A DNA stretch of 41,438 bases from a virus: IMG/VR virus record IMGVR_UViG_3300017967_005160, positions 1 to 41,438 of that record. The stretch is one strand, 5' to 3'. The stretch's first letter is position 1, and every line of letters starts with the position of its first letter. This document shows positions 9,651-21,541 of the stretch, piece after piece. The notes under the pieces were generated by a model that had not been told where the DNA came from, searched no databases, and saw only the letters and a program-made list of their open reading frames with translations. Both the position numbers and the translations under genes were made by a program.

Positions 9651-10280
9651 TTACGAATCGGTCAACTCTATTAGTTTATCAATTGTGGAGGGGTCTCCAG
9701 ATTCTTCAAAGCCCTTTAGTATGGAAAAAGCAGAGAATAAAAACTGATCGTCAAACGTATCAACAGCATAGTCGCCACTGCTGGTTAGTGACTTGCCCCA
9801 AAGCTTAGCAATCGAATGCATAAGTGCGTCAAGTTTTTCTCTGTTCATGGGGAATGTCAAAATAAACGTGACCACATCTTCTTTGGACATTGAGGAGAAC
9901 TGGGTCTGCCTGAGCCTCTGCTTGGTGTTGTAGGTGTCAACAGCGTCCACAAAGTCCTTGTATTTCTTCTCGTCCACCTTGTGCTGCTTGTGGTTTTGTC
10001 CAAATACCGCAGCAATGGTGGTAATGGGCATAGACTCAAGCTCTGCCTGCGTTGGGGAGTATCCAGCCTGCATACGCAGCACCTCTTTGTCGATAGGATC
10101 TCTCGTCTTCTTTATTTCTGTTGGGGACGCTGAAGGCCTCTGAATAATAGATGACATATTTCTTCTGGCTAGGTACATGAGGAACGTGGCATCGGCTTCG
10201 TTCGGCTTTAGGTACGTAAAGACAGCAGGCCTTCCCGGCTCTGACTTTATTGCCACTCTGTCGTTGTAGATGTAATACAT
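9651..10280 (-). CDS. Hypothetical head-region protein, 209 aa
   Basis: Start taken at ATG 10280 (MYYIYNDRVAIKSEPG), with AAAGGA 6-7 bases before it and the upstream stop just ahead at 10291; the longer frame would overlap that gene. An N-terminal beta part with PAVFTYLKPNEADATFLMYL is followed by a long helical region (SPTQAELESMPITTIAAVFG, and FVDAVDTYNTKQRLRQTQF) and an acidic C-terminus. No known motif. Sits between the giant head protein and the Cys/His-tagged protein, so a virion or assembly role is likely. Confidence 0.55.
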   Translation of the reverse strand: MYYIYNDRVAIKSEPGRPAVFTYLKPNEADATFLMYLARRNMSSIIQRPSASPTEIKKTRDPIDKEVLRMQAGYSPTQAELESMPITTIAAVFGQNHKQHKVDEKKYKDFVDAVDTYNTKQRLRQTQFSSMSKEDVVTFILTFPMNREKLDALMHSIAKLWGKSLTSSGDYAVDTFDDQFLFSAFSILKGFEESGDPSTIDKLIELTDS

Positions 10281-10290
10281 TGTCTTTCCT

Positions 10291-13200
10291 TTACCTAAGT
10301 TTCGTATTTGACGAGTAGTCAACAGCCTTTAACAGGAGATCTTTCAGTTTAGTCGCTGAATCATCGTCTATCTCTGAAAGTCTATCAAGCATCTCTAGAG
10401 ATTCCAACATTCTTCTAGCAGCAGCCTGTTCTGGAAACTTTCCGGTAGCCTCCAACTCCTCTGCCATGTCTTGTATGGTTTCTCTGACATCATCTCTGTT
10501 GTTATTTCTGAGAGTGTTTATCAATCTGTCAAGACCAGCTGAAATTTCTTCAGGGGTAGACTTTTTGAACACTGTTCCGTATGGGTTAGCAAACCGAGCA
10601 TCTCCGTGATTTGCAAACTTGTAGGCAAATGTTGTTATTAGTTCATCATCTGTCATGTTTGCGATGACTGTTTCTTCGGGGAGGGGAACTCCCAGATTTA
10701 TCGATCTTGAAATTTCTGGCTGGCTGAATGCGAGACCGTGGTCAATTGGATAAACGTCTTGACCTATAAGCATAATGTTTCCGGGGTTTCTGTCTGGATT
10801 TGCAGAAATGACATCTAGTCCCAACATTTGAATTACAGTAAAGGCACTGGTTGTGTCTCTCATCTGCTTCATATTGTCGGCGTATGGAACTGTATTGCTC
10901 ATTCCTTCGGCATCTGAGTAGAAACTTTGTGCAAATTGAATTAGCACAGCCGGTGTTTCATTGTCGCTTGACGTTGATCTGTTGGGCTGGATGAGTCTAA
11001 GCGCAGGCGCATCAAATCCAAAAACTTCACCAAGCTGATATCCAGCAACCTCTGAGTGAACTTCACCTACTCCCATTGCGTTATCGTAATAGGCCTTTAT
11101 GCCGTATCTGTGGCCGGTAAGCTTGTCTTCAAGAACAATTACTTCATTTGAGCTTGCGTTTCCGGGGAGAAGCTTGGGGGTAAAGCGAGACTCATCGCCA
11201 CGACCGATGTCATCCATTATTGCTGCGCCAATGTGTTCATCTGGTATCTCGGACAGTGGTGCACCTTGACGCATGAGGCGAACTGAATCATCTAGCGATA
11301 GATTTGATGTATTCTCTACTCTTACAAAGCTTTCACCATTTGGTGTAAGCGCTGAACGTATTTCTGCAACTGGGTTCATCGATCCGTCTGGTGCCCTATC
11401 TACCTTGAGAAGTTTGTCTGTTGGGTTTGATGAAAGTCTCATTCCTGACGGATCATAGTGAGCAACCGGTGCCGTGGCATAACTTAGGCGAACGTCCACG
11501 GGCAGGTATTGCTCTGCTCCGCTGCCCTTTGCTGTGAGCACATCAAATGCTTCCTGACCAACCTCGTCTATTATTTGCTGACGGCGCTCTGGGGTTACCT
11601 CGTAAGGAGATATGTTGAGTCTACCGCTTGAGTCAGAGTCTATGCGGTCACCCATAAAGTACCCAAAGGCCACGGAATTCTTTTCCCCATTGGGACCATC
11701 AAGAGCGAGCATGAAATCTCCGTGTCCGGGCATCATTTCTGCTGACTCTCCATTAAGGCTTGGCTGTACCATCCTTTCCAACCTAGCGTGGCGAACATCG
11801 TCTTTGATTAGCGCCTTCGCTATGATGCTTTCAGGACTTCCGTCATCTCTGTCGTATGCCTGAACCAGCTTGGCCATTTTGTCGTTCAGTTGAACGAGCG
11901 TATCGGGATCATAAGTTGGATCCTGCCGGAATCCACGACGACCCCACACTGAGTGACCGTCAATTCCCGGATAGACTTCAACAACAGCGCTCTTGGATGA
12001 CGCTGCGTAGAAGGTAAAGGCATGTGAGTTGAGCTGATCAGCAATATCGTATCCCTGAATACCGACAGCATTTCCATCCTTTGAGAATGTGGAGAAAGCA
12101 CGCATAGCGTCTTCTAGATTGGCCTCGTCTACGGTAGCCAGTAAATCTGCTTCTGTTATCTTTGGATTGGACAAGAATAGGAACTGGTTCTCTACGCTCT
12201 TTACGTTTCCAGTCTTTGCATCAAACTTGATTAGTCTCCTGTATGTCCGCGAGTCATCTGGATTGACATCTCTTACGGCAAGTAGAGTCTCTGTTCCGTC
12301 TGGGTTCTTCTTCAGCAGAGTGACTCTGAAGTCACCATTAGCCCTTACCGACTTTGCACCGCCAACTTTGTCTATTCTTATATCAGTGAGTATTGGTGTA
12401 ACACGAAGAGTGTAATCGTCGGAAGTGGCAACGTCAAAGTCGTGCCCGTGAGACAAAGCCAATTGAGTCCACTCTTTGAGATCGGCGTCAGACATATCTC
12501 CGACGGGTCCGTCGGTCTCCCACGGTCTTTCACCGTTGGGGTATCTTGAAGATATTACTCTCTCTGCCTTCTCCTTCTGTCGTCTGCGTAATGTCTTTAG
12601 AGCGCTCCTCCAGCTATAAGCTTCGACAGGCAGCTCGGACGGGACATCAGGGTCAACAACGAGGTCTCTAATTATTTGAGACGCTCTGCTTTCTTGCCTT
12701 TGTGTGAATGTTTGTTGGCTGATGTTTCCGGAGTCGGGTATTTCTCCAGATGCTATTCTTCTAGCATTGAAGAACACTTCGTTTCTGTAACTTTCTTTAA
12801 CTCTAGAAAGTCGATCATTTATAAAGTCTGCTGATAAATCATCTCCTCTAGCGGCCTCTACAATTGCATGAAGTTCAAAGTAAGCGGCGAATAGGTTTCT
12901 CTCTTCTATTTCATCTGGCTCTGGATTGTCACCAAAGAAAGTTATTAGATCAGAGAAGTACGCTTCGACTTCGCTGTGTGTCGATGTGGGGTTGCCTGCG
13001 GAATTTCCAACTATGTCTGTTATGTCGGCTAATAATCCGTCTCTTTGGAATTCTACAGAAGACAAAAGAGCTTGCATACCGTCGGGAGTGTCAGTAAATT
13101 CTGATACCTCTGACAACACTGAAACTTCTGGAGCGCCCTCTATCTCTCTAACGCTTAGCGACGGGTCAGTCTCCTCTGCTGGGCGAGAACGTGTTAGGGT

Positions 13201-15600
13201 TCGGACACCTAGAACTTCACCAAGGCGTTGTACACCGGAATAGATGGCATAGTTGATATCGTCTGATATGTTTTTCTCATCTTCGGTTCGTGGTGGATTT
13301 ATCGATATGCGAGCAGCTTCTGCTGTGGCGGCATCAGAAAGCGTGTCATATATGGAACGCAACTCTTCTGCAGATGCTTTCTCTAGAATGTCTGGATCTG
13401 ATAGATAAATTCCTAGATCTGTTAGATATGCCGCAAGCCCATCTCCATCAAGAAGAGATCTTTCTTCCGGACCCAATTCTCGTCCTAGAACAATCTCGTC
13501 AATTGTTGGCATTTCTCCGGCGACAGAAACTGGAGATACGTCGTCAACAAACTCTCGTGTCCATCTGCTGTACTTACCTACCAAAGAAGTTAGACCAACG
13601 ACGGTGCTCTTCTTCTCTTCATCCAGTCCGGGATTGTTTTGTATGCGCTTAGCATTTGGTGACTTGCTGGTCCTTACGTTTTGTATTGCGTCAAAAATCT
13701 TTGAGAACGCAGTGATGACCTGCTCGTCAATTCGACCACCGCAATCAGTGCCTGCTTGATCAGTGAACATGCCACCGTTTCTCGTTCCCGGTGGGCATCT
13801 GAATCTGTTTACGTCGGGATCAAAAAACGATGCACCAAAAGACCTTCTGGAAGCCTTTGTGTCGAATCCTGCAGAATTAGATAGCGAAGTAAATCTGTCT
13901 ACTTTTCGCTGTATGGAGTCGTGGTATCTGCTTTGGTTTTTCTTACTCCGACTCGCGTCGGTAAAGAAAAAAGGGTTTAAAGATTTTGAACCTCCACTCT
14001 CGCCTTCTACCCTTTCGAAGATTGGGTCATTTGGCGCTCGTCGTGGAGCGGAACGTGAAAGGAATGTCTCATAAACCCAGACGGGTACGGAGATTACCTG
14101 ATCGCCAGCCTGTACCTTAATGAGTTGGTTCCTTGAATCTTCTACGGGCTTGAAAGAGCCAGACTCAACTGTACCAAACTCAACCTTGAATCTACCATCG
14201 CTTCTGTCGGCAAACTCTCGTATCAGTGCCGTTGGATCCTCGGCATTAGAAACTGAGTCCACAGCTTCTCTTGTCTGAATCTTAAGCTGCTCTCTTTCCT
14301 CGGGTGACATTTCTCCGCCCTCTCGCACGACCCTAATGGCACCAGCTTCCGGTACGTTGAACACAACATCCCTGAGTCCAGTGGAGAATATTGGCAACTC
14401 ATTCCTGCCAATCATCCCAGATGGTGCCGTCACAACGTAAGTACCATCTGCCATGTCATCAAACTCGTCAAGGCGAGAGAAGGCTGATAAGGTTACCGCA
14501 GGCTCTAGAATAACACCGTCACGACGAACGAGCCTGTCTGGGAACTCGTCTCCCTCTTGCAGTCGCTCTAGAATGTAGTCAGTCGACTTCTTCACTAGGG
14601 TTGGGCTTGTCTTTTTTGGTGCGACTGGAATTTGAGCAGCACGGATAATATCGGCTGCGTTTCTGTTCTTTCTCAAATCACCAATGCTCCGAACCAAGTC
14701 GGCGCTTCGTGAAAGTCGTGCGAGTGATCTCATGGCCGCTGGGGCGAGAGATCCCGGACCTATGTTAGGTATGCGGAGAAGCTGGGCACCGCAAGTTGAG
14801 AACTCGGAGTTTGTGAATGTTCCACCCTTTTCGAAACCGGGAGGGCAGCGGAACTTGTTTCTTGCCCCACGCCCACCTGTGACAAGACGGCGAGCAACGC
14901 CTGTCCCGGGCCGACTTGGGACGCCGGGCGTTAGCGCTTCCCAAGTTGCTGAGCGGACAGGGCTACGGAAGTCAGAGAAGTCACCGGGCAGGGCAATTGA
15001 ACCAGCGGCTTGAAGCGCCTGACCGGCCCGTGATGAGCTACCAAATATGCCGACGCGCTTGACTTCTACGTCAAGGTCAATTTCCTTTACTTCACCCGGG
15101 AAGTTTATTTCCTGAGAGTACTTGGCAAACAGCGCAGCCTTGAAATCAACAGCATTTTGTCGGTTGTTTATTGGCTGTGTGAGTATGCCGTTAGAATCTC
15201 TGGATTCTCTGATCGCTAATCTTAGAGCAGATACGTTAACTCCGTTTGGAGATGGATTGAAGGACTTTGCCTTTCTGGCGGCTCGCCTCACTGATCTGGT
15301 CACACGACGAGATCTACGCTTCCCTGAAGAGGCACCCCTCTTTTTCTTTCCTTCATTTGGCCACTTGCCGGTAAGCTCGTGGTGAAGCCAAGCGCAAATT
15401 CTCTGTGGTCTACCACCGAACCGTGGCTTGTCCATGAGGATGACGACACACCGACGGAAACCACCGGGCTTCTTCATTATGGGTCGCCAATACTTGAGAA
15501 GATCCTCTAGATTACCTCGCCGTGGGCCACGGCCACGGGTAAGCGCTGTAAGCTGATCGGCATTGGGCCCTACTTCTGGAGCCTTGACCTCAACTTCCAT
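10291..15600 (-). CDS. Giant head protein (1769 aa) with C-terminal PI3/4-kinase-like domain
   Basis: Largest gene in the window. Residues about 24-83 are a phage module (RGNLEDLLKYWRP, FRRCVVILMDK, ICAWLHHELTGKWP) often seen at the start of actinophage head proteins. An Arg-rich stretch follows (91-112). Two copies of a Cys tag occur at 250-271 and 600-621 (FRCPPG, then GG-x-FT, then CG). About 950-1450 holds long low-identity regions including VWGRRGFRQDPTYDPD. The C-terminus has a kinase-like fold: GIKAYY with K1502, HSEVAGYQLGEVFG with E1517, DRNPGNIML at 1603-1611 and IDHG with D1620. That order matches the ATP-binding Lys, helix-C Glu, catalytic Asp/Asn and metal Asp of PI3/4-kinase/HipA-like kinases. 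It lies among head genes, so it is probably packaged and could be injected. Target unknown. Confidence 0.75.
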   Translation of the reverse strand: MEVEVKAPEVGPNADQLTALTRGRGPRRGNLEDLLKYWRPIMKKPGGFRRCVVILMDKPRFGGRPQRICAWLHHELTGKWPNEGKKKRGASSGKRRSRRVTRSVRRAARKAKSFNPSPNGVNVSALRLAIRESRDSNGILTQPINNRQNAVDFKAALFAKYSQEINFPGEVKEIDLDVEVKRVGIFGSSSRAGQALQAAGSIALPGDFSDFRSPVRSATWEALTPGVPSRPGTGVARRLVTGGRGARNKFRCPPGFEKGGTFTNSEFSTCGAQLLRIPNIGPGSLAPAAMRSLARLSRSADLVRSIGDLRKNRNAADIIRAAQIPVAPKKTSPTLVKKSTDYILERLQEGDEFPDRLVRRDGVILEPAVTLSAFSRLDEFDDMADGTYVVTAPSGMIGRNELPIFSTGLRDVVFNVPEAGAIRVVREGGEMSPEEREQLKIQTREAVDSVSNAEDPTALIREFADRSDGRFKVEFGTVESGSFKPVEDSRNQLIKVQAGDQVISVPVWVYETFLSRSAPRRAPNDPIFERVEGESGGSKSLNPFFFTDASRSKKNQSRYHDSIQRKVDRFTSLSNSAGFDTKASRRSFGASFFDPDVNRFRCPPGTRNGGMFTDQAGTDCGGRIDEQVITAFSKIFDAIQNVRTSKSPNAKRIQNNPGLDEEKKSTVVGLTSLVGKYSRWTREFVDDVSPVSVAGEMPTIDEIVLGRELGPEERSLLDGDGLAAYLTDLGIYLSDPDILEKASAEELRSIYDTLSDAATAEAARISINPPRTEDEKNISDDINYAIYSGVQRLGEVLGVRTLTRSRPAEETDPSLSVREIEGAPEVSVLSEVSEFTDTPDGMQALLSSVEFQRDGLLADITDIVGNSAGNPTSTHSEVEAYFSDLITFFGDNPEPDEIEERNLFAAYFELHAIVEAARGDDLSADFINDRLSRVKESYRNEVFFNARRIASGEIPDSGNISQQTFTQRQESRASQIIRDLVVDPDVPSELPVEAYSWRSALKTLRRRQKEKAERVISSRYPNGERPWETDGPVGDMSDADLKEWTQLALSHGHDFDVATSDDYTLRVTPILTDIRIDKVGGAKSVRANGDFRVTLLKKNPDGTETLLAVRDVNPDDSRTYRRLIKFDAKTGNVKSVENQFLFLSNPKITEADLLATVDEANLEDAMRAFSTFSKDGNAVGIQGYDIADQLNSHAFTFYAASSKSAVVEVYPGIDGHSVWGRRGFRQDPTYDPDTLVQLNDKMAKLVQAYDRDDGSPESIIAKALIKDDVRHARLERMVQPSLNGESAEMMPGHGDFMLALDGPNGEKNSVAFGYFMGDRIDSDSSGRLNISPYEVTPERRQQIIDEVGQEAFDVLTAKGSGAEQYLPVDVRLSYATAPVAHYDPSGMRLSSNPTDKLLKVDRAPDGSMNPVAEIRSALTPNGESFVRVENTSNLSLDDSVRLMRQGAPLSEIPDEHIGAAIMDDIGRGDESRFTPKLLPGNASSNEVIVLEDKLTGHRYGIKAYYDNAMGVGEVHSEVAGYQLGEVFGFDAPALRLIQPNRSTSSDNETPAVLIQFAQSFYSDAEGMSNTVPYADNMKQMRDTTSAFTVIQMLGLDVISANPDRNPGNIMLIGQDVYPIDHGLAFSQPEISRSINLGVPLPEETVIANMTDDELITTFAYKFANHGDARFANPYGTVFKKSTPEEISAGLDRLINTLRNNNRDDVRETIQDMAEELEATGKFPEQAAARRMLESLEMLDRLSEIDDDSATKLKDLLLKAVDYSSNTKLR

Positions 15601-15604
15601 GACC

Positions 15605-15763
15605 TCATTCCTCTCCGTCTAATAGGTATTCTATTTCGTAATCTTCGTACAACCCAGAGAAAGCATCCTCTAAGACATTAATTTCAGTCAAGTTAGAGAG
15701 CTCTAGTGATCCTAGAGCTTCTCTAGCTTGCTGTAGTCTTAGTTCTGGTAGAAGTGGATGCAT
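15605..15763 (-). CDS. Small acidic protein, 52 aa
   Basis: Start chosen at ATG 15763 (MHPLLPELRLQQAREALGSL); a TTG at 15799 would overlap the upstream gene by 26 bases. The product is helical and acidic, ending LYEDYEIEYLLDGEE. It fills the gap between the scaffold-like gene and the giant head gene with only a few bases on each side. No family recognised; the helical, acidic nature would allow a small assembly partner. Confidence 0.5.
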   Translation of the reverse strand: MHPLLPELRLQQAREALGSLELSNLTEINVLEDAFSGLYEDYEIEYLLDGEE

Positions 15764-17535: not shown

Positions 17536-19212
17536 TTAGTTTACAGTGTCACCGGACTCGGTGTCAATTTCAGCCTCACGCCGTGTGGCGAAAGACAACT
17601 CGGACTCAATTGAAGACAAAGCTTCTGCAGTCTTCTTCATGAGATCTGTCTCATCTTCGTCAGCGGCGAAGTGTAGATCTACTCCGTCTTCTGACTTGAA
17701 TGCGAACATGGGTAGTGTGGCAACGGCCTTTGTAATGTCAAATGATGCGTCATCGTCGCACTTTACTTCTAGAACAAATCCGCTGGTGCTCTTCTTGCGC
17801 TGGACCATTTCGCCCATTGCTTCCACCATTGGCTTTTCCCGCTGCTCTGTCAAGAACTCCTCAAGTGCGCTAATGAGGGCAAGAGTCTGTGAACGGAGCT
17901 TGCCAGCGCCAGTAATGGGGATCATGTTGTTGTATGCCATCAACAGGGTGGTCATTGGGTCGTTGAGATGATCATCGTCCTTGTCCCGATCCTTGCGGTA
18001 CTCGTAACCGTGCCCCTTCTCTTGGGAACCGCCACAACCACATGAAGCGTCCTTCGCTTCCTCTACATCTGCGCCAGCAAGGTAGTTGTTGTGTGAGTTG
18101 ATGTTGGCGTTGCCATCAAACTTCTTGAGAGCAGCCATGTACTCGTCGTGATCTGAGCATGGCATGTACCCACCACCGTGTGAGTGGTAGCCTGTGCAGC
18201 CAAGAGCCTTTGACCAAGACAGTGCGGCATCTGGCGTTGGGAAAGTCATTCCCTCTTCAGCCTCGCGTACGCCTGTTGGCTCTTCAGCGTCTTCCTTTAC
18301 ATCCATATCTGCGGGTGGAGGAGTCTGCTCCTCGTCATCCTGAGGCTTATTCTCTGGCATCTCTTCTCCTTGTTGGGGGGCTGGGGTCTCCTCTCCTGAC
18401 CCTTCTTCTACGTAAGTACGCACTGCGCGAACCTTCTTTGGCTTCCCGATGACGAACTCACCGTCTTCAACGGAAACTTGGGCTCTCCAAGTCATGTTAT
18501 CGGAAGTTTGAAATACTACGTTCTCGGAAGTAACATCAACAATGTTGACAGGCTTTCCAAGCGCTGTAGAAATTGAGCGACCAAGTGTGGCCATGGCTGG
18601 TGTAGATGGGTTCTTGTTGTCCATCTCGTCTTCGTCATCCTGCCACTGCCAGCCCTTGGAGCTTCTGGCGTCTGAATCGTCCTTGACGCTGATCGTTCCT
18701 GTTAGCTGATTTGCGCCGTGTAGGACTGGAGAAACTTCGTACAACTCAACTTCACGAAGAAGGTTTGCCTGTCTGCCGGGGTCGTAATCAGCATTTATCG
18801 TCTTGTAGCCAATTGACCACTCTTGGTCCATGCCATAAAAAGCTACGTTGGCAAAAGCCTCACGGCCTCTTTCGGTGTTCAGATTGAACTGAACCTTTGC
18901 GAAAAGACCACCAATTCCAGCCCGCTTCATCTTCTCGGGCAAGCGTGAGTCGGTCTTTGGTACTTCATAGATCTCCAAAACCTTACCTATTGGCTGGTTC
19001 CAGTCGTGGCCCCATACGACGCGAGGCTTGCGGCGCTTTAGTGAAGATGTGAAAGCGCCCGGTAGAACAATGTCTCCAACGCTGTCTTTGTTGCCAATTC
19101 CTGAAACGAAGCACTCAACTATTCCCTGAACCTTGTCTACGCCAATCTGTCCAGAAATAGCCTTGAACGCAACATCGTTTAGTTGTGATGATTCAATAGT
19201 CGGTGTTGGCAT
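17536..19212 (-). CDS. HK97-type prohead protease with long C-terminal extension
   Basis: 558 aa. Residues 15-175 are the S78 prohead protease: NKDSVGDIVLPGAF (41-54), VVWGHDWNQPIG with the catalytic His H69, EWSIGYKT with the Ser nucleophile S133, and LYEVSPVLHGANQ (157-169). It matures the capsid by cutting the delta domain and other internal proteins. The usual protein is about 200 aa; here 380 further residues are added, acidic and Pro-rich (about 265-320), then a Cys/His tag (C338, H342, C351) matching the two tags in the 8354-9640 protein, then SCGCGG and a helical end. GGAGTAAC precedes the ATG. Portal, MuF and protease are in the standard order. Protease call is firm; the extension is not understood. 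Confidence 0.9.
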   Translation of the reverse strand: MPTPTIESSQLNDVAFKAISGQIGVDKVQGIVECFVSGIGNKDSVGDIVLPGAFTSSLKRRKPRVVWGHDWNQPIGKVLEIYEVPKTDSRLPEKMKRAGIGGLFAKVQFNLNTERGREAFANVAFYGMDQEWSIGYKTINADYDPGRQANLLREVELYEVSPVLHGANQLTGTISVKDDSDARSSKGWQWQDDEDEMDNKNPSTPAMATLGRSISTALGKPVNIVDVTSENVVFQTSDNMTWRAQVSVEDGEFVIGKPKKVRAVRTYVEEGSGEETPAPQQGEEMPENKPQDDEEQTPPPADMDVKEDAEEPTGVREAEEGMTFPTPDAALSWSKALGCTGYHSHGGGYMPCSDHDEYMAALKKFDGNANINSHNNYLAGADVEEAKDASCGCGGSQEKGHGYEYRKDRDKDDDHLNDPMTTLLMAYNNMIPITGAGKLRSQTLALISALEEFLTEQREKPMVEAMGEMVQRKKSTSGFVLEVKCDDDASFDITKAVATLPMFAFKSEDGVDLHFAADEDETDLMKKTAEALSSIESELSFATRREAEIDTESGDTVN

Positions 19213-19307: not shown

Positions 19308-20090
19308 TTACTTGCTGAAGCTTAAATAACACCTGCAGTTTATTGTCAATCCGGGTGGTGAAAGTGGGTCTCGTGGGAATCTTAGTGGGATTCCGTCCGT
19401 TATGAACGGGGAATTGACGGGGACAGTTGTGCCGTCAAGGTCTCTGTGAGACTCACGAACCTTAGCGTCTCCCATTGTTCTCCACGTTTTATATAAAGTC
19501 TTATTGGTTCTTAACTGCTTTACCCGCGCAGAATCAAACAATCCGGTGTTGTATGCACCTACGACGGCTGTCTCTGAAATCAACTTGCTGCGCTTTTCTT
19601 TGAGATTCTTGAAAACGCTTCTAACTAGAGACGCAATTAGTGCGATACGCAGGGCATTGAACGAATCATCACCAATATCTGGGGAAACATCCATAGATAT
19701 GTCTACTGCGGAGATTATTTCTTTTTGGGTTGTTTGATTGAACTTATTTACTGCTTCTATTTGATAGCTGAGAGCAGCATTCATTTGATCTTGTGTTACT
19801 TCTTCACCGGTTCCGGCATCAAGGTTTCTAACTATTGCTGCTTTATATATTTTCTGCATCTCCTCAACCAAGGGCTGTGATGCAACACTTAGGGCAGCGA
19901 GTGGAACAATTGAAGCAGCATTTCCTGCTCCTATGTTGATCAGAGCAGAGTTGCCATCCTCGTTTAGGGCTGACATGACGATTTGTTCTTGGTCGTCAAT
20001 GACTCTTTCTAGAGTTTTTTCTAGACTTTCCTCTAATCTGGAGAAATCAGAGGCTACTTTTGTTTCCCAAGAGTCGTTAGAGTCATTCAG
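19308..20090 (-). CDS. MuF-type minor head protein (start uncertain)
   Basis: The C-terminus is a clear Phage_Mu_F domain: YKTWRTMGDAKVRESHRDLD, then PFITDGIPLRFPRD, then INCRCYLSF. This family sits near the portal and may be ejected with the DNA. The first ATG in frame is at 19976 (222 aa), but it has no ribosome site, and the frame stays open and protein-like upstream (SRLEESLEKTLERVIDDQEQ) until a stop at 20109-20111. Between that stop and 19976 there is no ATG, GTG or TTG. Possible explanations are a CTG at 20090, an ATT at 20093, or a -1 frameshift from the portal gene at a CCCTTTA heptamer (20093-20099). I give the CTG as the left limit of what can be translated. Confidence 0.8.
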   Translation of the reverse strand: MNDSNDSWETKVASDFSRLEESLEKTLERVIDDQEQIVMSALNEDGNSALINIGAGNAASIVPLAALSVASQPLVEEMQKIYKAAIVRNLDAGTGEEVTQDQMNAALSYQIEAVNKFNQTTQKEIISAVDISMDVSPDIGDDSFNALRIALIASLVRSVFKNLKEKRSKLISETAVVGAYNTGLFDSARVKQLRTNKTLYKTWRTMGDAKVRESHRDLDGTTVPVNSPFITDGIPLRFPRDPLSPPGLTINCRCYLSFSK

Positions 20091-21541
20091 AATAAAGGGA
20101 GACTCTTCTCACCCTCGGCTTCCTCGGTTGAAAGTTCACTTGGTACCTCTGAAGCTGGCTTTTCTATGTCTTCCACGCCAGAAACAGAGCCTGCGGGGGC
20201 AAACTGCCCACTTTCAGGATCAAACTCGGCTATTTGCTGCTGGGAAGCCTGTGCGCCTTGTGTTTCTAGCGGTGTTCCACTTTGAACCAATCCAGATCCA
20301 GTATCCATGGGCTTCTCGGTATTGGCGATAGGCGTAAGGGCTGGGTTGGCAAGGATTACGTCAGCAAGCTCTGAAACAACCTTCTTTCTTCCTGTAAGGT
20401 CTCGGTACTCATTGGCGCTGATAAGGCCCTGCTGATACTCCTGAAGATAGAATCTCTCGTTCTCCTGCTTGCTTAAGATGAGAACTGGCACATTTGAGGT
20501 GTCGAAATCAAGGTAGTAATATGGGTCAATGGCGTCAAATGATCTAGCAATTAGGTCCAAGTGCGGAGACATGGTTTCCATCCAGAACACCTTGCCCTCT
20601 TCACCGGCATTTGAGAATGTTCTGTTTGCTGAGTTGCCGATAATTGACTCAGGTACGCCGAAGGCTGCAAGGATTTCCTCCTTGGTCAGCGTCCTCATCT
20701 GGATGTATGCGGCATCCCTTGGGCTTGCTGCAGTGTCAACGAAATCAGCTCCATCGTCTGATGAAATGACACCAACGGCCCCAGCACGACCAATATTGCC
20801 ACGGAAACGAGATCTAAGTTCATCCTTGTCCTCTTCGCTAATTTCGCTTCTCAACACTAGAAGACCACCGGGTCTTCCGTCGTTGATTAGGAAGTTTCTG
20901 TTATATACTTTGGCTAAATTTTCTACCTCAATAGCAACACCAGCAGCCTCCATTGGTGTCATTGAAAGGTATGGATCAAGCGGGTGTGGTCTTCTTATCC
21001 AGATTACGTTTTCTGGCTTGATGATGCGTTTGGGTACGTTGTGCATCGCTACTTCGTAGCCGCTAACAAACTTATCAACCGATGGGATTGGTGAGGTGTA
21101 TTGCGGTGGAAGTAGGTGAAGGGCGATTGGGGTACCATCTCGCGATCTTACGACTTCAACAAACACGCCTCGGCTGCTCATCATTAGCTGTGCTGAGAGT
21201 CGATACCTGAAGGCGAACGAGTTCTCTCCCATGTTTGCCGTGTTGTTGAAAATCTTCAGGATTTCGGCATCTCTTACGATTTCACCGAATGGGTTGTTAT
21301 CTTTGCGAAATATTGCAGGAAGGCGTGCTTGGTTTGATGAGATTACGTCGATACATCTAAACACCCAAGTTACCTTAGCTACACCATCTCTGTAAGCCTT
21401 TTGGATATCCCAAGCGTCGTGGTATCCGCCGTCTACAGACAGTGACGGGTTGTAGGCAACTGGAGCACCTACTGAAATTTTGGCCTTCTTTTCTTGGACG
21501 CCCGAGTTCTCTAAAGACTTACTCTGTGTGTTCCAAGCCAT
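20087..21541 (-). CDS. Portal protein, HK97 family
   Basis: 484 aa, normal family length. Recognisable parts include WVFRCIDVISSNQARLPAIF (about 59-78), LHLLPPQYTSPIP, NVIWIRRPHPLDPYLSMTPM, the NDGRPGGLLVL block, and the C-terminal region MRTLTKEEILAAFGVPESII that is typical of Phage_portal (PF04860). Portals form the 12-mer DNA channel and dock the terminase. The last 90 residues are Gln/Ser/Glu-rich. The start overlaps the upstream stop (TAATG). The terminase lies just beyond on the opposite strand. The stop is unusual in sitting one codon after a slippery heptamer leading into the MuF frame. Confidence 0.93.
   Translation of the reverse strand: MAWNTQSKSLENSGVQEKKAKISVGAPVAYNPSLSVDGGYHDAWDIQKAYRDGVAKVTWVFRCIDVISSNQARLPAIFRKDNNPFGEIVRDAEILKIFNNTANMGENSFAFRYRLSAQLMMSSRGVFVEVVRSRDGTPIALHLLPPQYTSPIPSVDKFVSGYEVAMHNVPKRIIKPENVIWIRRPHPLDPYLSMTPMEAAGVAIEVENLAKVYNRNFLINDGRPGGLLVLRSEISEEDKDELRSRFRGNIGRAGAVGVISSDDGADFVDTAASPRDAAYIQMRTLTKEEILAAFGVPESIIGNSANRTFSNAGEEGKVFWMETMSPHLDLIARSFDAIDPYYYLDFDTSNVPVLILSKQENERFYLQEYQQGLISANEYRDLTGRKKVVSELADVILANPALTPIANTEKPMDTGSGLVQSGTPLETQGAQASQQQIAEFDPESGQFAPAGSVSGVEDIEKPASEVPSELSTEEAEGEKSLPLF
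20093..20099 (-). promoter_or_regulatory. Candidate -1 frameshift slippery site at the portal/MuF junction
   Basis: The heptamer CCCTTTA is read in the portal frame as C CCT TTA, the classic X XXY YYZ form; a -1 slip gives CCC TTT and enters the MuF frame. The portal stop TGA follows one codon later (20087-20089). An SD-like GAGGGTGAG ends 8 bases upstream, the arrangement used in dnaX to stimulate slippage. No strong downstream hairpin is apparent. Confidence 0.45.

What the first reader, a model, noticed from the sequence alone, without database searches (positions are those of the whole stretch)
10530..11165. PI3/4-kinase-like domain fused to a 1769-aa virion-type protein
The last 290 or so residues carry a complete set of kinase-like residues in order: K1502, E1517, D1603/N1608 and D1620 (motifs GIKAYY, DRNPGNIML, IDHG). 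The rest of the protein has modules found in phage head proteins and lies between the scaffold and capsid genes. The likely meaning is a kinase packaged in the head and delivered into the host with the DNA, or one that modifies capsid proteins during assembly. Toxins fused to MuF-type head proteins are known, but I cannot name a described kinase version with this layout.
Basis: partly seen in the sequence, partly recalled or inferred. Interest (0 to 1): 0.8.

Follow-up and report, generated by a model that had tools for sequence, protein, structure and literature searches.

The report
Kinase carried by phage head protein
A large head-region protein of an uncultured tailed phage ends in a kinase-like enzyme domain; relatives of that domain end many other phage head proteins and bacterial secreted toxin-like proteins, often beside the same small partner gene, which suggests an enzyme the phage delivers into its host, although delivery and activity are untested.

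Summary
ORF 10291-15600(-) encodes 1769 aa and ends in a PI3/4-kinase-like domain (about aa 1465-1740) with K1502, E1517, D1603, N1608 and D1620 intact. A profile built from relatives only scores it at 35.6 bits, against 9.2 for the best of 5000 shuffles. An AlphaFold2 model (pLDDT 66, pTM 0.66) is kinase-like. The gene lies in a head cassette (portal, MuF, S78 protease, giant, capsid), but the giant has no MuF domain; MuF is a separate gene.

The main result lies outside the window. The same domain ends other phage head proteins: Phage_min_cap2 (pMLP1 and five actinobacterial prophages), portal, S78 protease plus 2H phosphoesterase, a giant of Microbacterium phage Pumpernickel, and a head-tail-region protein of halovirus HSTV-2. 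It also ends actinobacterial WXG100 (type VII) toxin-like proteins. An undescribed partner of about 70 aa (GWSNGY motif) adjoins it in phages and bacteria alike; 24 of 32 partner hits in one order lie within about 2.2 kb of such a kinase.

Best reading: a head-borne effector kinase of the MuF-toxin/polyvalent-protein kind, with a kinase type I did not find described. Packaging, activity and target are untested, and the window has no detectable partner gene.

The parts
10291..15600 (-). 1769-aa giant protein of the head cassette carrying the C-terminal kinase
   Evidence: matches phrog_6439 (aa 43-88) and phrog_3162 (aa 1496-1632)
10381..11208 (-). PI3/4-kinase-like domain, aa 1465-1740
   Evidence: profile hit 35.6 bits vs 9.2 best of 5000 shuffles; AF2 pLDDT 65.8, pTM 0.66, kinase order of secondary structure; Foldseek to kinases
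11086..11103 (-). GIKAYY with K1502 (putative beta-3 lysine)
   Evidence: assigned from motif and model; MAFFT places the lysine column 3 residues away
11050..11052 (-). E1517 (helix C glutamate), invariant in the 13-sequence alignment
10771..10794 (-). catalytic loop DRNPGNIM, D1603 and N1608 invariant
10735..10746 (-). metal-binding IDHG motif, D1620 invariant
15337..15474 (-). N-terminal phrog_6439 module (aa 43-88), shared with Pumpernickel gp84 (a head-maturation-protease-like protein)
   Evidence: E=5e-6; blastp E=2e-6
14791..14847 (-). Cys motif CPPG..GGTFT..C, copy 1 (aa 252-270)
13741..13797 (-). Cys motif CPPG..GGMFT..C, copy 2 (aa 602-620)
9651..10322 (-). 223-aa ORF directly downstream; better start ATG at 10280, 10 nt after the giant's stop, behind AGGAAAG; no relative found; takes the place of the partner gene by position only
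15605..15763 (-). putative 52-aa acidic ORF directly upstream of the giant; not related to the SNGY partner
20087..21541 (-). portal protein
   Evidence: Phage_portal E=8e-52
19308..19976 (-). MuF-like head morphogenesis protein (separate gene)
   Evidence: Phage_Mu_F E=1e-12
17536..19212 (-). prohead protease (Peptidase_S78) with extension
   Evidence: E=5e-13; 41% to the protease part of the kinase fusion L095
15774..17510 (-). 578-aa acidic protein (scaffold-like), module shared with Pumpernickel gp84
   Evidence: 55% over 85 aa
8354..9640 (-). 428-aa protein with DUF3721/DUF5824 modules; one module is fused to the kinase in L112
   Evidence: 49.6% over 115 aa to L112
6627..7934 (-). HK97-type major capsid protein
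   Evidence: Phage_capsid E=9e-46

Best explanation
The C-terminal 300 residues are an intact PI3/4-kinase-like phosphotransferase domain used as an effector. The rest of the giant ties it to the assembling head through the N-terminal module it shares with head-maturation proteins. The protein would be packaged in few copies, possibly trimmed by the S78 protease, and released into the host with the DNA, where the kinase phosphorylates a host target to favour infection. Supported by sequence and model: the kinase fold and residues, the place in the head cassette, and repeated attachment of the same domain to other head proteins and to type VII (WXG100) toxin-like proteins. Inferred: packaging, delivery, activity and target. 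In many relatives, temperate ones included, a partner of about 70 aa with a GWSNGY motif accompanies the kinase and probably restrains it as immunity protein or antitoxin. No such partner is detectable in this record.
For: Kinase: profile of relatives without the window 35.6-40.1 bits against at most 9.2 for shuffles; family profile hits PI4K-beta in the PDB at E=3e-4; relatives exceed the Pfam PI3_PI4_kinase cut-off; AF2 model pLDDT 65.8, pTM 0.66, Foldseek to PDB kinases E=3.5e-4 and, among viral proteins, to a 1340-aa mycobacteriophage 'ADP-ribosyltransferase' E=1e-6, a 'Phage portal protein' and two 'PI3K/PI4K catalytic domain' proteins. Head carriers: Phage_min_cap2-kinase in pMLP1 and five prophages; S78 protease-2H-kinase; portal-kinase; Pumpernickel gp82 after the portal gene; HSTV2_16 in the head-tail region; standalone between portal and S78 protease. 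Effector use: C-terminal tip of WXG100_2 proteins. Partner: adjoining in phages and T7SS loci, 24 of 32 partner hits within about 2.2 kb of a kinase hit.
Against: The window's copy is a long branch that does not fall firmly inside the effector clade; it is drawn near the cellular SCO1664 family (80/91). It has no detectable SNGY partner (best E=0.4 over all frames). The Pfam cut-off is not reached. The lysine is assigned from motif and model; the alignment puts it three residues off. No virion proteomics for this phage and no activity data are at hand. Toxin-bearing MuF proteins were reported only from temperate phages (PMC5576092), and I found no integrase among the window genes tested, though the record may be a fragment.
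Confidence: 0.6

Rival explanations
1. Morphogenesis kinase: the domain phosphorylates head proteins (protease, scaffold, capsid) during assembly and has no role in the host.
For: The gene sits among portal, protease, scaffold-like and capsid genes, and many relatives are fused to head proteins or lie between portal and protease.
Against: The same domain and partner end WXG100 (T7SS) proteins that have nothing to do with capsids, and a prophage copy nests with a T7SS copy (95/86). Carriers are unrelated to each other, and most phage head cassettes lack it (tblastn finds it in two phages, three records, of 50,697).
Confidence: 0.17
2. Anti-defence enzyme: delivered with the DNA, it phosphorylates a component or a nucleotide signal of host immunity rather than general host targets.
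For: Relatives share a polypeptide with a 2H phosphoesterase (L095 and, by 41% similarity, L111), a domain proposed to degrade immune nucleotide signals (PMC5512222, PMC9503650); L114 carries an ART-like stretch (not tested) and the closest viral fold match is annotated ADP-ribosyltransferase.
Against: A dedicated small partner and use in T7SS toxin-like proteins fit a generally toxic activity better than a defence-specific one. No window gene gives direct support.
Confidence: 0.15
3. Degenerate or structural kinase-like domain without catalysis; in the window it is a relic, which is why no partner gene is kept.
For: Long branch (2.05 changes per site), no partner; some distant family members have lost the DRN motif.
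Against: All five catalytic positions are intact and E, D, N and D are invariant in the 13-sequence alignment; the reading frame is intact.
Confidence: 0.08

Closest known systems
MuF-type polymorphic toxins of phages (PMC5576092, PMC3482391)
   Same: Effector domain at the C-terminus of a head-cassette protein; in relatives the carrier is a MuF-family (Phage_min_cap2) protein, the domain is shared with T7SS toxin-like proteins and a small candidate immunity gene follows.
   Different: The window's carrier has no MuF domain; the kinase is not in the passages read from these surveys (no occurrence of 'kinase' in PMC5576092; PMC3482391 describes a lantibiotic-synthetase-type toxin kinase); no partner gene in the window.
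Polyvalent proteins of phages and conjugative elements (PMC5512222)
   Same: Very large protein encoded among late virion genes with an enzymatic domain likely to act after entry; relatives carry 2H and probably ART domains.
   Different: The polyvalent protein kinases described are a truncated Ser/Thr/Tyr-kinase group lacking the C-terminal subdomain, from Verrucomicrobia-Chlamydia and Bacteroidetes (pro)phages; here the C-terminal lobe is present and the relation is to PI3/4 kinases. Zeta-toxin kinases fused to MuF are reported there too, but are a different enzyme.
Microbacterium phage Pumpernickel gp82 (with gp81)
   Same: 2235-aa giant after the portal gene ending in the same kinase; gp81 just upstream is an SNGY partner (E=6e-9).
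   Different: Rest of the polypeptide unrelated by sequence; partner present there, not in the window.
Micromonospora phage pMLP1 Phage_min_cap2-kinase protein
   Same: C-terminal DRNPGNIM...IDHG kinase on a head protein followed by a scaffold-like gene.
   Different: 647 aa, genuine MuF-family carrier, partner gene overlaps the kinase's 3' end.
SCO1664 family (TIGR03843), cellular actinobacterial PI3/4-kinase-like proteins
   Same: Same superfamily and catalytic motifs; profile E=4e-6.
   Different: Standalone cellular gene; TIGR03843 cut-off far from reached (16.6 against 172.4 bits).
Phage T4 Alt and phage T7 protein kinase (as cited in PMC5512222)
   Same: Precedents for a head-injected modifying enzyme (Alt) and for phage phosphorylation of host proteins (T7 kinase).
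   Different: Alt is an ADP-ribosyltransferase; the T7 kinase is named there as a precedent for action only. Neither was compared with the window here.

Membership tests
PI3/4-kinase-like superfamily (PF00454) | Catalytic set: lysine, helix-C glutamate, D....N catalytic loop, D of DHG/DFG | tested here: met
PI3/4-kinase-like superfamily (PF00454) | Pfam curated cut-off reached | tested here: not met
   20.4 bits against 27.1; relatives reach it: L012 32.4, pMLP1 29.7, L097 38.8
PI3/4-kinase-like superfamily (PF00454) | Bilobal kinase fold | tested here: met
   AF2 pTM 0.66, Foldseek kinases; moderate confidence
MuF-type polymorphic toxin | MuF or minor-capsid domain in the same polypeptide | tested here: not met
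   no MuF hit in the giant; MuF is a separate gene
MuF-type polymorphic toxin | C-terminal enzymatic domain shared with other toxin delivery families | tested here: met
   the domain family ends WXG100_2 proteins; placement of the window's copy inside that clade is unsure
MuF-type polymorphic toxin | Immunity gene next to the toxin | tested here: not met
   no SNGY partner in the window; met in many relatives
MuF-type polymorphic toxin | Temperate phage | tested here: inconclusive
   no integrase among genes tested; the record may be a fragment
Polyvalent protein | Encoded among late virion genes | tested here: met
Polyvalent protein | Two or more effector domains in one polypeptide | tested here: inconclusive
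   only the kinase is recognised in the window's giant
Polyvalent-protein truncated STY kinases | C-terminal subdomain lost | tested here: not met
   helices follow the IDHG motif in the model
SCO1664 family (TIGR03843) | NCBIfam equivalog cut-off | tested here: not met
   16.6 against 172.4 bits
Virion-delivered effector (Alt-like) | Protein present in particles and injected | not testable with these tools
   needs virion mass spectrometry and translocation assays

The most novel reading that the evidence does not exclude
The window's kinase is a divergent member of an undescribed effector/partner system: a PI3/4-kinase-like effector domain with a GWSNGY partner, exchanged between the head proteins of tailed viruses of bacteria and archaea and the type VII toxin-like proteins of Actinobacteria, so that one kinase is delivered either from a capsid or by secretion.
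Probability: 0.5. Interest if true: 0.78.

Novelty: new variant of a known kind. Interest (0 to 1): 0.62.

Why it matters
Effectors carried in phage heads are known as a theme, but the kinds recognised in the literature read here are mostly nucleases, peptidases, ADP-ribosyltransferases and (p)ppGpp synthetases. A PI3/4-kinase-like family spread over many head carriers, with a recurring small partner and direct relatives at the tip of type VII toxin-like proteins, would add phosphorylation to what is delivered with the genome. Two cultured phages (pMLP1, Pumpernickel) and a cultured halovirus (HSTV-2) carry it, so delivery, toxicity and neutralisation by the partner can be tested now.

Tried and rejected
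MuF identity of the giant: rejected, no hit. HipA-like relation: the Acinetobacter phage qsb1 and L014 proteins are HipA_2, weakly similar, standalone and in the tail region; not the same system. SNGY partner inside the 223-aa ORF or anywhere in the window: not found. Relation of the 223-aa ORF to Pumpernickel gp83: none. A first AF2 model with 5 sequences failed (pLDDT 42.5) and its Foldseek list was not used. phmmer of the domain, of the L114 giant and of the L111 giant against the PDB found nothing useful. A tree could not place the window firmly. The genome search does not draw relatives for a virus record, so no host was assigned. An earlier idea that non-temperate relatives lack the partner was dropped once Pumpernickel gp81 proved to be one. 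Eight partner genes without a kinase nearby gave no kinase hit within the regions read; they are orphans or act with something else.

Full report
Observation. The ORF at 10291-15600 on the minus strand encodes 1769 residues. All residues named in the finding are present at the stated positions. The Pfam PI3_PI4_kinase model gives E=5.4e-4 (20.4 bits, below its curated 27.1) and phrog_3162, a family of unknown function, gives E=2.4e-6. Profiles built only from relatives score the protein at 40.1 and 35.6 bits, where the best of 2000 and 5000 shuffles reach 8.2 and 9.2 bits and the next-best window ORF reaches 3.3 or less. The domain is therefore a true relative of this kinase family.

Surroundings. 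On the same strand, in order: portal (20087-21541), MuF (19308-19976), S78 protease (17536-19212), an acidic 578-aa scaffold-like protein, the giant, a 223-aa ORF, a 428-aa protein and the HK97-type capsid protein. The giant itself has no MuF domain. Its N-terminus (aa 43-88) matches phrog_6439 and Pumpernickel gp84, a head-maturation-protease-like protein. The 223-aa ORF is tightly coupled: its better start, ATG at 10280, lies 10 nt after the giant's stop behind AGGAAAG. No integrase was found among the genes tested, but the record may be incomplete.

Relatives in phages. A near-identical record exists (L002). More distant relatives carry the domain at or near the C-terminus of other head-region proteins: a Phage_min_cap2 protein in Micromonospora phage pMLP1 and in five actinobacterial prophages, four of them with recognised terminase or portal neighbours; Pumpernickel gp82, 2235 aa, after the portal gene; an S78 protease plus 2H phosphoesterase plus kinase protein of 831 aa, with an ORF nearby downstream that resembles the window's capsid protein (38%); a portal-kinase fusion (L108); giants of 1178, 1014 and 1932 aa; a 509-aa protein whose middle module is 50% identical to part of the window's 428-aa neighbour (L112); a standalone gene between portal and S78 protease (L012); and HSTV2_16 of an archaeal tailed virus, between head and tail genes. 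Some members are recorded twice (L106 is L097, L113 is L101). By tblastn with several family members, only pMLP1 and Pumpernickel are found among 50,697 phage records; HSTV-2 was reached through the fold search, so sequence searches undercount.

Relatives in bacteria. In 395 genomes of the class of Micromonospora, strong hits fall in very large ORFs and weak ones (about 1e-9) in short ORFs that look like the cellular SCO1664 family. In the order of G351, 39 of 347 genomes have a strong hit. Several of these proteins have a WXG100_2 N-terminus with the kinase as C-terminal tip, the usual layout of type VII polymorphic toxins. The domain also occurs inside longer bacterial proteins, as in Nocardia.

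Partner gene. Directly overlapping or adjoining the kinase lies an ORF of about 70 aa with a C-terminal GWSNGY-like motif, in phages and in T7SS loci. The four partners submitted have no Pfam assignment. The phage L012 partner and the T7SS L053 partner are similar at z=13 against shuffles; some other cross-lineage pairs are only weakly similar one to one. A profile finds it also beside the kinases of L108 and L111, upstream of the kinase in L112, and as Pumpernickel gp81 upstream of gp82. An independent search with the partner alone gave 32 hits in 346 genomes; by comparing coordinates, 24 lie within about 2.2 kb of a kinase hit. The other eight gave no kinase hit in the regions read. This is not universal: kinases internal to longer proteins and some C-terminal ones showed no partner, and none was found in the window in any frame.

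Structure. A model of aa 1465-1740 with a 13-sequence alignment has mean pLDDT 65.8 and pTM 0.66 and the order of elements of a kinase: two strands, helix with E1517, two strands, helices, catalytic loop, two strands, D1620, then C-lobe helices. Foldseek's best PDB matches are protein kinases (E=3.5e-4, TM about 0.4). The best viral match is a 1340-aa protein annotated ADP-ribosyltransferase of Mycobacterium phage Onyinye (E=1e-6, TM 0.57); others include a portal protein and two proteins annotated PI3K/PI4K catalytic domain. The family profile without the window hits PI4K-beta in the PDB at E=3e-4. The substrate, protein or otherwise, cannot be told.

Interpretation. A domain that recurs on unrelated head proteins and on type VII toxin-like proteins, with a recurring small neighbour, behaves like a polymorphic effector domain. 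The likely scheme is: co-assembly into the head, release with the DNA, phosphorylation of a host target; in relatives the partner protects the producing cell. Fold, context and recurrence rest on the tool results above; packaging, delivery, catalysis, target and the immunity role are inferred. For the window's own copy the inference is weaker, because it is a long branch and has no partner.

Literature. The polyvalent-protein survey describes a different, truncated kinase group and MuF-zeta-toxin fusions (PMC5512222). The MuF toxin survey has no occurrence of 'kinase' in its main text and reports toxin-bearing MuF proteins only from temperate phages (PMC5576092). The polymorphic-toxin survey mentions a lantibiotic-synthetase-type kinase (PMC3482391). 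Searches of the held open-access library found no description of a PI3/4-kinase-like domain on head proteins. That library lacks most subscription papers, and database names such as 'PI3K/PI4K catalytic domain-containing protein' show that single members have already been given such names.

Noticed in passing
L112:4822-7338: Two kinase-like genes in tandem: a 509-aa head-module protein ending in the kinase, then a 328-aa second kinase-like ORF 33% identical to it over 205 aa.
   Followed up: partly
L095:6518-9013(-) and L111:571-6369: A 2H phosphoesterase domain in the same polypeptide as the kinase: by Pfam in L095, by 41% similarity in L111.
   Followed up: partly
L114:3631-6675: A stretch that reads like an ADP-ribosyltransferase upstream of the kinase; judged by eye, not tested.
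   Followed up: no
L116:10647-12119 (HSTV2_16): The archaeal tailed virus HSTV-2 carries the kinase in a 490-aa protein between capsid and tail genes; the N-terminal part looks like a head-tail joining protein by eye.
   Followed up: partly
L117-L124: Eight SNGY partner genes without a detectable kinase nearby in actinobacterial genomes, possibly orphan immunity genes.
   Followed up: partly
L018:4738-8859: An Oribacterium MAG protein of 1373 aa holds two kinase-like motif sets (DRHPGNFM...DND and DRNESNLF...DND).
   Followed up: no
L003:5620-7264 and L014:1466-3125: HipA_2-like kinase gene followed by a conserved gene of about 275 aa; in L003 it lies among phage tail genes; a separate two-gene unit.
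   Followed up: no
window:14791-14847 and 13741-13797: Two copies of a CPPG...GGxFT...C motif in the giant, perhaps metal-binding; function unknown.
   Followed up: no
window:25084-33414: Auxiliary genes: PAPS-reductase-like protein, ParB-like protein, FkbM methyltransferase and glycosyltransferases.
   Followed up: no
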